This document shows, in pieces, positions 47,666-59,956 of a stretch of 59,970 bases of DNA. The notes beneath the pieces are model-generated. The model made no database searches. It worked only from the letters and a program-made list of their open reading frames with translations, and was not told where the DNA came from. A program made the position numbers and the translations under genes. Every line of letters starts with the position of its first letter. Within the stretch, counting starts at the first letter, position 1. Source of the stretch: a virus; IMG/VR virus record IMGVR_UViG_3300030101_003657, positions 1 through 59,970 of that record; one strand, given 5' to 3'.

Positions 47666-47700
47666 GGAACAAAAAAACTGGGCACCATACCCAAAGTTCC
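47666..47700 (+). terminator. Compound hairpin directly after the giant virion gene
   Basis: GGAAC (47666-47670) pairs with GTTCC (47696-47700), enclosing a TGGG/CCCA stem. It starts at the base after the stop codon and has no T-run. It probably works with the next hairpin in ending the plus-strand transcript. Confidence 0.65.
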
Positions 47701-47709
47701 TGTAACCAA

Positions 47710-47737
47710 AAAAGGGAGGCCGAAAGACCTCCCTTTT
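47710..47737. terminator. Bidirectional rho-independent terminator between convergent genes
   Basis: AAAAGGGAGG pairs perfectly with CCTCCCTTTT around the loop CCGAAAGA. A-runs and T-runs flank both sides, so the hairpin can stop transcription from both strands. It separates the giant virion gene from the minus-strand ribonucleotide reductase. Confidence 0.93.
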
Positions 47738-55860: not shown

Positions 55861-56610
55861 TCACAGATAATCAAGCACTTGCGAGTGATCCACGTTTTCT
55901 ATTAATTTTTCTACAGCTTGCTTTTTTAGCTCTGAAACTCTTACATAAGCTGATACACCTTTAATACCTAATGCAGAAGCTATTTCATTAGCGGACCATT
56001 TAGGACCATCTAAACCATAGCTTTTGTTTAGAACAAACATTTCGTTCCACTCAAGATGTTTTAATAACAAACTCATTAAGTAAGCGTTGAGTAGTGTTTC
56101 GTTATAAGGATCTGACTTTTCAGGTATTTGATAAATCATATCTTCATCATCTTGCTTAGCATCGTAAGATAAAAATATAGAATTAAAAAACATCCTAACC
56201 ATTTTTTCATCTTTAGTGCTACGCATTTCATTAAGCTTATGCTCAGGTATACGCATTGTACCTCTATTTATATCAATAGCTCTACGTATTCCGCCTCTTA
56301 TTCTTTTAGCTAAAAATGATTTTAAAGTTTTCTCTACGTCGTCAGATGCAAATAGTTTTTCTCTATCTATTTTATCTACAGCTTTACATAGTTGTAAACT
56401 ACCTTCTTGTATTATATCCATTATAGACATAACACCTGAAGCTTCTTGACTTGTAGCAAACTTTCTACTTATGTTTTCTACTAAAGGTAAGAATATTACT
56501 TTTAACTCTACAGGTTTGTAATCTATAAATCTTTTTGTTTTTATACATTGTATAGCTATTTTAATATCTTCTTTGTATCTTATATAGTTCTTTACGTTAT
56601 ATTTTTTCAT
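55861..56610 (-). CDS. Phage sigma-70-family RNA polymerase sigma factor (249 aa)
   Basis: Region 2 helix SGVMSIMDIIQEGSLQLCKAVDKID (residues 58-82), with the 2.4-like LAKRIRGGIRRAIDINRGTMRIPEHKLNEM near 104-133. C-terminal region 4 helix-turn-helix is WSANEIASALGIKGVSAYVRVSELKKQA near 210-237. Should guide host core polymerase to phage promoters, perhaps structural-gene promoters, or the 32-nt element. Overlaps the HTH gene upstream by 14 nt, pointing to a regulatory pair. Confidence 0.85.
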   Translation of the reverse strand: MKKYNVKNYIRYKEDIKIAIQCIKTKRFIDYKPVELKVIFLPLVENISRKFATSQEASGVMSIMDIIQEGSLQLCKAVDKIDREKLFASDDVEKTLKSFLAKRIRGGIRRAIDINRGTMRIPEHKLNEMRSTKDEKMVRMFFNSIFLSYDAKQDDEDMIYQIPEKSDPYNETLLNAYLMSLLLKHLEWNEMFVLNKSYGLDGPKWSANEIASALGIKGVSAYVRVSELKKQAVEKLIENVDHSQVLDYL

Positions 56611-59613: not shown

Positions 59614-59645
59614 TATTATCTATTAGTAATCGTATTTAGTTTGTA
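59614..59645 (-). promoter_or_regulatory. Conserved 32-nt promoter-like element, copy D
   Basis: TATTATCTA, 7 variable bases, TCGTA, TTTAGTTTGTA on the plus strand; same spacing as copies A-C at the other window end. It fills the gap between the stop of the 71-aa gene (59647) and the ATG at 59608. On the minus strand the -10-like TAGATAATA is only about 5 nt from the ATG, so transcripts would have a very short leader or none. Confidence 0.72.
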
Positions 59646-59646
59646 A

Positions 59647-59862
59647 TTATACTGATTGTAACTTATCAAGTCTATCTAATTTTTGTTTGTTAGTTAGCTC
59701 GTTCCAGTAGCTAGGCGGTTGCCAATCAGGTATGCTAGCTCTCATTGTAGCGAAAGCTATTCTTTCTTTGTATTTGACCGCTGTGTCTGACAGCTCGTCA
59801 CCTGGTTTAGTTGATAGATCTCCTAACAACATAAACACTTTCATTGCTTCTATATTACTCAT
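59647..59862 (-). CDS. Small hypothetical protein (71 aa) directly behind the structured RNA
   Basis: I choose ATG 59862 (MSNIEAMKVFMLLGDLSTKP); the frame could be extended to a GTG at 59886, but that would lie inside the structured RNA. The middle is Arg/Trp-containing (FATMRASIPDWQPPSYWNEL). No family recognised. Its ATG is one base after the last helix of the candidate RNA, so its translation could be controlled by RNA folding. Confidence 0.65.
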   Translation of the reverse strand: MSNIEAMKVFMLLGDLSTKPGDELSDTAVKYKERIAFATMRASIPDWQPPSYWNELTNKQKLDRLDKLQSV

Positions 59863-59863
59863 A

Positions 59864-59956
59864 CCACGAAAAGCCCGTACCTTCACCTATGGGCTTATGC
59901 CGAAGGGAAAATACGAGCCGATCAAAGGATCACTGGTCGCCTTATATATTTCGTGG
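59864..59956 (-). promoter_or_regulatory. Candidate pseudoknotted RNA leader or riboswitch-like element
   Basis: Read on the minus strand: closing helix CCACGAA (59956-59950) with UUCGUGG (59870-59864); a hairpin at 59939-59914 with GAUC/GAUC and CGACC/GGcUCG stems; then CCUUCG (59906-59901), AAGCCC (59896-59891), UGAAGG (59885-59880), GGGCUU (59876-59871). The first pairs with the third and the second with the fourth, an H-type pseudoknot. The segment is far more GC-rich than its surroundings. No family matched by eye. Confidence 0.6.

What the first reader, a model, noticed from the sequence alone, without database searches (positions are those of the whole stretch)
59864..59956. Possible unknown riboswitch or structured RNA with an H-type pseudoknot
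A 93-nt minus-strand segment holds a closing 7-bp helix, a bulged hairpin and an a-b-a'-b' pseudoknot (CCUUCG/UGAAGG and AAGCCC/GGGCUU). An alternative hairpin GGC-AUAA-GCC competes with the second helix, a switch-like feature. The closing helix ends one base before the ATG of a small gene, so folding could hide the start. It is GC-rich in an AT-rich genome. I could not match it to known riboswitches or small ribozymes.
Basis: partly seen in the sequence, partly recalled or inferred. Interest (0 to 1): 0.85.

Follow-up and report, generated by a model that had tools for sequence, protein, structure and literature searches.

The report
Plug-in RNA modules in phage leaders
A folded RNA sits between two early genes of a marine bacterial virus, and its loops carry interchangeable folded pieces that related viruses swap among gene gaps and even onto a second, different RNA scaffold; this kind of mix-and-match RNA does not appear to be described.

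Summary
Window 59864-59956 (minus) is a stable, GC-rich (49.5% against 32.6%) structured RNA directly before an ATG. No random window segment folds as well (0 of 3000).

The scaffold is helix P1 (CCACGAA/UUCGUGG) plus hairpin P2 (GCUCGUAU/GUACGGGC). Fifty-three copies were catalogued in about 35 related viral contigs (flavobacteriophage-like). All 52 testable 3' motifs have a perfect P2 partner, with compensatory changes in P1 and P2.

Two slots, X (between P1 and P2) and Y (P2's loop), carry hypervariable, nestable modules with conserved loops and changing stems. The same modules recur at different gene junctions. Several also occur in a second, unrelated scaffold, a likely H-type pseudoknot, in a sister clade that lacks the first. 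One module, B, has 9 of 15 pairs with two-sided changes; a model built without the second-scaffold copy finds it at E=7e-17.

Nothing matches Rfam. Function is inferred: probably cis-acting control of the downstream early gene (the 15 nt before the ATG are 18% unpaired against 65% for other early genes). Riboswitch is not supported. All data are metagenomic; no experiment exists.

The parts
59864..59956 (-). Whole element (frame 1), from near the contig end to the ATG of the 71-aa gene
59950..59956 (-). P1, 5' strand CCACGAA
   Evidence: pairs with 59864-59870; two-sided changes CCACGAA/UUCGUGG to CUACGAA/UUCGUAG
59919..59949 (-). Slot X, module G: AUAUAU-AAGG-CGACCAGUGAU-CCUU-UGAUCG (stem 59940-59943 / 59925-59928, loop 59929-59939)
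   Evidence: same module in L003 with AAAG/CUUU, in L002, L017, L091 with AAGG/CCUU; loop CGACCAGUCAU on stem CUCGA/UCGAG in L059
59911..59918 (-). P2, 5' strand GCUCGUAU
   Evidence: pairs with 59873-59880; GCUCGUAC/GUACGGGC and GCUCAUAC/GUAUGGGC alleles
59881..59910 (-). Slot Y, module D: UUUCCCUUC-[GGC AUAA GCC]-CAUAGGUGAAG, with CCU (59904-59906)/AGG (59886-59888) and GGC (59899-59901)/GCC (59892-59894)
   Evidence: also in the second scaffold in L110 and L132, and beside it in L143
59873..59880 (-). P2, 3' strand GUACGGGC
   Evidence: 52/52 testable copies have a perfect upstream partner
59869..59872 (-). UUUU between P2 and P1 on the 3' strand; kept in nearly all copies (UUU at the third site, UAUU in L091 unit 1)
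59864..59870 (-). P1, 3' strand UUCGUGG, one nt before the ATG
59647..59862 (-). Downstream 71-aa gene (MSNIEAMKVFMLLGDLSTK...), no Pfam match

Best explanation
SHOWN: the segment is one copy of a family of intergenic, sense-strand structured RNAs in a clade of marine flavobacteriophage-like viruses. A two-helix scaffold (P1 + P2) spans the gap from the stop codon of one early gene to, usually, the ATG of the next. Two slots, one between P1 and P2 and one in the loop of P2, accept interchangeable, nestable RNA modules whose loops are conserved and whose stems covary. Modules, and at least once a whole element, have moved between non-homologous gene junctions, and several modules (B, C, D, F, H, J) also sit in or beside a different scaffold in a sister clade. 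INFERRED (mechanism): the scaffold works in cis on the mRNA. P1 and P2 hold the start region of the downstream small gene in double strand, in hosts whose ribosomes start without Shine-Dalgarno sequences and are tuned by local structure. The gene is then translated only when P1 is opened by a ribosome finishing the upstream gene, or when the hairpin is cut (the UUUU asymmetric loop between two stacked helices looks like a phage RNase III-type processing site). The variable modules do not take part in that step. They are tolerated where they do not break P1 and P2, and spread by recombination between related phages. Their conserved loops imply that each also has a fold or binding role of its own, which is unknown.
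For: Homologues: 11 relatives of the 71-aa gene all carry CCAC...GCTCGTA...GGGCTTTTCGTGGT-ATG with different inserts. Fifty-three copies were catalogued. Scaffold pairing: 52/52 testable, chance about 4% per site. Covariation: 95.5% of cells paired, 15 two-sided cells against 4.5 +/- 1.8 shuffled and 0-2 when slid. Strand: the U.G wobble in P2 is kept in 21 of 22 distinct frames; it would be an A-C mismatch on the other strand. Modules: B has 9 of 15 pairs with two-sided changes and 20 cells against 7.6; the second-scaffold copy in L159, not used to build the model, is found at E = 7e-17. H loop CAAUUUAAAA occurs on GCCUUA/UAAGGY, GGUA/UACC and UGAUA/UAUCA stems; CGACCAGNNAU on AAGG, AAAG and CUCGA stems. 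Mobility: modules H, B, D and I each occur at several junction types. The L005 and L033 elements are 101/103 identical between unrelated genes. Two scaffolds, same modules; no genome examined has both scaffolds, and the two groups are sister lineages by terminase (79-100% against 71-75%). Occluded start: 18% unpaired at -15..-1 in 37 element genes against 65% in 62 leader-type genes. [quoted passage not shown]
Against: The functional half is untested. In L007, L046, L090 and in the arrays of L059 and L091 the distance from upstream stop to P1 is 26-52 nt, so simple stop-codon coupling cannot act everywhere. In several copies the next ATG is 18-43 nt away, so blocking the start is not universal. 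The host was inferred from distant relatives only. All sequences are metagenomic contigs; no record of the phage collection showed the element by DNA. The copies are related, so shuffle controls overstate significance. The scaffold sequences for one search were joined by me and most were first detected through P2 pairing; the check does not require it.
Confidence: 0.5

Rival explanations
1. Terminator or attenuator at a gene-shuffling junction, like the promoter / stem-loop cassettes (PeSL) of T4-type phages: P2 plus UUUU ends transcripts, and the conserved short sequences serve as recombination joints that swap small genes.
For: The elements lie exactly where gene content changes: five upstream gene classes meet about eleven downstream classes. 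In L024, L028, L031 and L050 the stem-loop is followed within 5-24 nt by a repeated promoter-like leader.
Against: The U run is only UUUUC and the terminator scan does not list the element, while true operon-end terminators are found at 47678-47694 (-, seven T) and 47710-47737 (+). L091 has UAUU, which still pairs with its P1 strand CCGCGAAUA. Usually no promoter fits between hairpin and ATG. A plain terminator does not need P1, nor modules with conserved internal loops.
Confidence: 0.2
2. RNA processing or stability signal: a two-helix hairpin with an asymmetric loop cut by host RNase III, as in T7 early mRNA, giving each small gene its own 5' end.
For: The minimal form (for example L026: CCACG-UUA-P2-UUUU-CGUGG) is two stacked helices with an asymmetric loop whose 3' side UUUU is the most constant part.
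Against: Helices are short (5-8 bp each). Likeness to T7 sites is from memory, not tested. It does not explain the modules.
Confidence: 0.25
3. Selfish mobile hairpins: the modules spread for themselves (as DNA or RNA) and land in loops where they do no harm, like double-hairpin elements in organelle genomes.
For: Nesting, tandem arrays (L059 three units, L091 two), movement among junctions and between scaffolds.
Against: Loops are conserved while stems change in step, which copying alone does not predict. All copies are in the sense orientation. No transposase-like gene was noticed next to them, though this was not searched systematically.
Confidence: 0.2
4. Riboswitch sensing a small molecule.
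For: Structured 5' leader against a start codon.
Against: No constant aptamer: X and Y can be absent or replaced while the downstream gene stays the same. No Rfam match.
Confidence: 0.03
5. Assembly artefact: metagenome assemblies joined different strains at short shared sequences.
For: Several contigs, the window included, end at or near the element.
Against: The same module-junction combinations recur in independent metagenomes (the ATGTAGTGAACTGG module in L003, L098, L099; the X+Y pair in L005 and L033), and stems and sister scaffolds covary.
Confidence: 0.04

Closest known systems
PeSL cassettes of T4-type phages (Arbiol et al. 2010, PMC2839356; Comeau et al. 2014, PMC4122927; seen only as cited in PMC4503421)
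   Same: Intergenic stem-loops at sites of intense small-gene shuffling in a tailed phage; sometimes next to a promoter-like sequence.
   Different: Here the stem-loop is a scaffold with multi-domain, swappable RNA modules, mostly directly before an ATG, with a short U run and usually no promoter in the gap; the phages are unrelated podovirus-like viruses of Bacteroidota.
T7 early mRNA RNase III sites (from memory)
   Same: Two stacked helices with an asymmetric internal loop between early genes of a podovirus.
   Different: Shorter helices, inserted modules, no cleavage evidence.
Double-hairpin / repetitive hairpin-forming elements of organelle genomes (for example PMC2800124)
   Same: Small hairpins that multiply in intergenic regions.
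   Different: Here conserved loops with covarying stems, sense-strand only, and fixed slots in two scaffolds.
Ornate bacterial and phage RNAs (GOLLD, ROOL, OLE; PMC12286853)
   Same: Structured RNAs of little-known function, some in phages.
   Different: No Rfam match; here the architecture itself is modular and variable between close relatives.

Membership tests
Any of 4227 Rfam 15 families | score above the family's gathering threshold | tested here: not met
   window; frame-1 relatives; frame-2 relatives, only a tRNA-Asp nearby
Riboswitch | one conserved aptamer domain across homologues | tested here: not met
   X and Y replaced or absent with the same downstream gene
Riboswitch | ligand-dependent change of structure | not testable with these tools
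   needs in-line probing or SHAPE with ligands
   no two-sided change, pairs broken, conflicts with P2
Intrinsic terminator | GC-rich hairpin followed by at least 5 T in 8 bases (the scan's definition) | tested here: not met
   not listed; tail is UUUUCGUGG
PeSL cassette | stem-loop at gene-content junctions | tested here: met
   junction table
PeSL cassette | composite with an early promoter | tested here: inconclusive
   only 4 copies have the promoter-like leader directly downstream; its promoter activity is not shown
RNase III processing site | cleavage at the internal loop | not testable with these tools
   needs in vitro cleavage or 5'-end mapping
Protein-coding conservation | open frame kept across homologues | tested here: not met
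   insert lengths 0 to about 130 nt, between stop and start codons

The most novel reading that the evidence does not exclude
Flavobacteriophage-like viruses carry a toolkit of small RNA folds (about nine seen here, A-J) that behave as exchangeable parts: each keeps its loops, changes its stems in step, and plugs or nests into defined slots of at least two unrelated RNA scaffolds, spreading across gene junctions and between sister phage clades. That would be natural mix-and-match RNA architecture evolving by domain insertion and swapping at the level of close relatives.
Probability: 0.65. Interest if true: 0.85.

Novelty: categorically new. Interest (0 to 1): 0.78.

Why it matters
Growth of large RNAs by insertion of helices into loops is usually inferred over deep time (rRNA expansion segments, intron peripheral domains; general knowledge). 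Here it can be watched among close relatives, with the same parts on two scaffolds, so the rules of RNA domain insertion, swapping and nesting become directly testable. The elements also mark the joints at which small early phage genes are exchanged, and may be a new way to control translation in bacteria that do not use Shine-Dalgarno sequences. Several modules have strictly conserved loops and no Rfam match, so each is a candidate for a new RNA fold or binding site.

Tried and rejected
Rfam scans of the window and relatives: nothing. Phage database by DNA: no match to the locus, chance hits only for the L091 element. The scaffold in 84,980 bacterial and archaeal genomes: 3 chance hits without P1, in sequence that looks coding. 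Nearest database phages (MW202828, about 46 of 61 kb fetched, and elemoA, about 34 of 62 kb fetched): no frame or module motif seen (for the larger parts). A second pseudoknot in module B (GGR 9-11 / YCY 36-38) is compatible with the seven sequences of A1 by eye but competes with better supported pairs; left open. T7-like RNA polymerase for the promoter-like repeat: PF00940 found in none of 13 contigs, but the control did not ring, so inconclusive. Integron attC-like, CRISPR-decoy and type III antitoxin ideas: considered, no supporting feature; not tested. Papers: no description found; the two PeSL papers are not held.

Full report
OBSERVATION. The minus strand of 59956-59864 reads CCACGAA-AUAUAUAAGGCGACCAGUGAUCCUUUGAUCG-GCUCGUAU-UUUCCCUUCGGCAUAAGCCCAUAGGUGAAG-GUACGGGC-UU-UUCGUGG, then U, then the ATG of a 71-aa gene. 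GC is 49.5% against 32.6% for the window; no random window segment of the same length is as stable (0 of 3000), and the shuffle z-score is -3.7. The window is a virus contig that ends 14 nt beyond P1, so the gene upstream is not visible.

CONTEXT. The terminase matches an uncultured podovirus (63.5%) and Flavobacterium phages of the elemo group (44%), with Cellulophaga phages and others also hit. The element lies in the minus-strand operon with a primase/helicase-like protein, a possible sigma factor and many small genes.

HOMOLOGUES. Eleven viral loci encode the 71-aa protein, and all have the same frame before its ATG, but with radically different inserts. Pattern scans, which do not rely on the gene, raised this to 53 catalogued copies. 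The frame is P1 (CCACGAA/UUCGUGG), slot X, P2 5' strand, slot Y, P2 3' strand, UUUU, P1 3' strand. Slot X ranges from 1 nt to about 130 nt, slot Y from 7 to about 60.

EVIDENCE FOR THE SCAFFOLD. Starting from the 3' motif alone, 52 of 52 testable sites have a perfect 8-nt partner upstream (4% expected per site). P2 occurs as GCUCGUAC/GUACGGGC, GCUCAUAC/GUAUGGGC, GCUCACAC/GUGUGGGC and GCCCAUAC/GUAUGGGC. P1 occurs as CCACGAA/UUCGUGG and CUACGAA/UUCGUAG, among others. Counted over 22 distinct frames, 15 cells have changes on both sides against 4.5 in shuffles and 0-2 when slid. The conserved U.G pair of P2 points to RNA of the sense strand. Caveat: rows are related and the alignment was joined by hand.

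THE PSEUDOKNOT. Four homologues carry the same Y module as the window (the window included). The nested fold (P2, CCU/AGG, GGC/GCC) is 100% paired with two two-sided changes, one of them GGC/GCC to GAC/GUC in L036. It would also dissolve P2.

MODULES. The inserts are not random. They fall into recurrent small folds whose loops are constant while stems change in step: module B, a roughly 50-nt three-way junction; H, loop CAAUUUAAAA; G, loop CGACCAGNNAU; J, GUGAG-(R)YGUGU.../UCUUA-CUCAC, with GUAAG/CUUAC in L164 and GUGAA/UUCAC in L054; C, UGAAUAG-GYC-CGAYCAGCA-GRY-AACGAA; D, UUCCCUUC-[hairpin]-CAYAGGUGA; F, the CCGAAACUCGG repeat; also A and E, seen in two or three copies. Modules nest: C inside J in L024, another fold inside D in L002. 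The same module occurs at different gene junctions (H at four, B at three plus arrays). In one case the whole element is 101/103 identical between unrelated gene pairs (L005, L033).

A SECOND SCAFFOLD. A scan for module D alone hit contigs with another frame: an outer stem (CGAGGU/ACCUCG, or GAGAGU/ACUCUC), GUGGU, slot 1, GGCAGG-AUAAAGC, slot 2, ACCAC-R-CCUGCC, which is an H-type pseudoknot by its order of strands. Its slots carry J (L143, L159, L164, L166, L170), a C variant (L132), D (L110, L132), B (L159), F (L149, L179, L180) and the H loop (L166, L180). The B model, built without L159, finds it at E = 7e-17. No contig examined has both scaffolds; frame-1 and frame-2 phages are sister groups by terminase. 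The inner stems of this pseudoknot vary little, so its covariation support is limited to the outer stem and it was not counted formally.

FUNCTION. Nearly every frame-1 copy, array units aside, lies between a stop codon and the next gene; in most the ATG follows P1 by one to three nt. The 15 nt before the ATG are 18% unpaired in 37 such genes, against 65% in 62 genes with the repeated leader. In Flavobacterium johnsoniae, initiation is tuned by local structure and Shine-Dalgarno sequences are lacking (abstract of PMC6847099). From this I infer that the scaffold restrains the downstream gene until P1 is opened or cut. Termination is less likely: the U run is short and the scan finds true terminators elsewhere but not here. 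These steps are inference; no expression data were available.

EVOLUTION. Upstream gene classes (five) and downstream classes (about eleven) combine across the element in many ways, as with PeSL cassettes of T4-type phages, which I know only through citing papers. Several contigs end at the element, so local misassembly must be kept in mind, but the same combinations recur in separate metagenomes and the covariation cannot come from misassembly.

VERDICT. A real, structured, unclassified RNA. 'Categorically new' is my judgement from absence in Rfam and in the papers I could search; most subscription papers were out of reach.

Noticed in passing
window minus strand near 59615, 757, 466 and 239; well over 100 copies in related loci: A repeated, sequence-conserved leader TTACAAACTAAATACGANNACTANNRGATAATATNAATATG sits 3-5 nt before many start codons of the early operon; its core AATACGANNACTATAGG resembles a T7 promoter. 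No T7-like polymerase was found by PF00940, but the control did not ring.
   Followed up: partly
L132:11286-11551 and the matching gap before ORF 4699 in L110: A long structured-looking intergenic stretch ends in a tRNA-like T arm and acceptor (GTGGGTTCGAGTCCCACTCATACTACTA) but is not called as tRNA or tmRNA (ARAGORN, Rfam); it repeats CTTGAAAAATAG and holds F-like pieces.
   Followed up: no
L148 and L162: Minimal frame-2 pseudoknot without inserts: GGAGAGTTGGGTGGTTTTAACGGCAGGATAAAGCAAGAACCACGCCTGCCCACTCTCTC; a good target for structure work.
   Followed up: partly
IMG/VR contig 3300026505_000002 (L001, L011): Both contig ends carry the same gene region with different elements, which suggests a join of two related strains or an unusual end repeat.
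   Followed up: no
window 55861-56610 (-): A 249-aa protein with a sub-threshold match to sigma-70 region 2, a possible phage sigma factor.
   Followed up: no
L049, gene after the third site: A 161-aa downstream gene matches pyrimidine dimer DNA glycosylase (Pyr_excise), so the shuffled cargo includes a possible DNA-repair enzyme.
   Followed up: no
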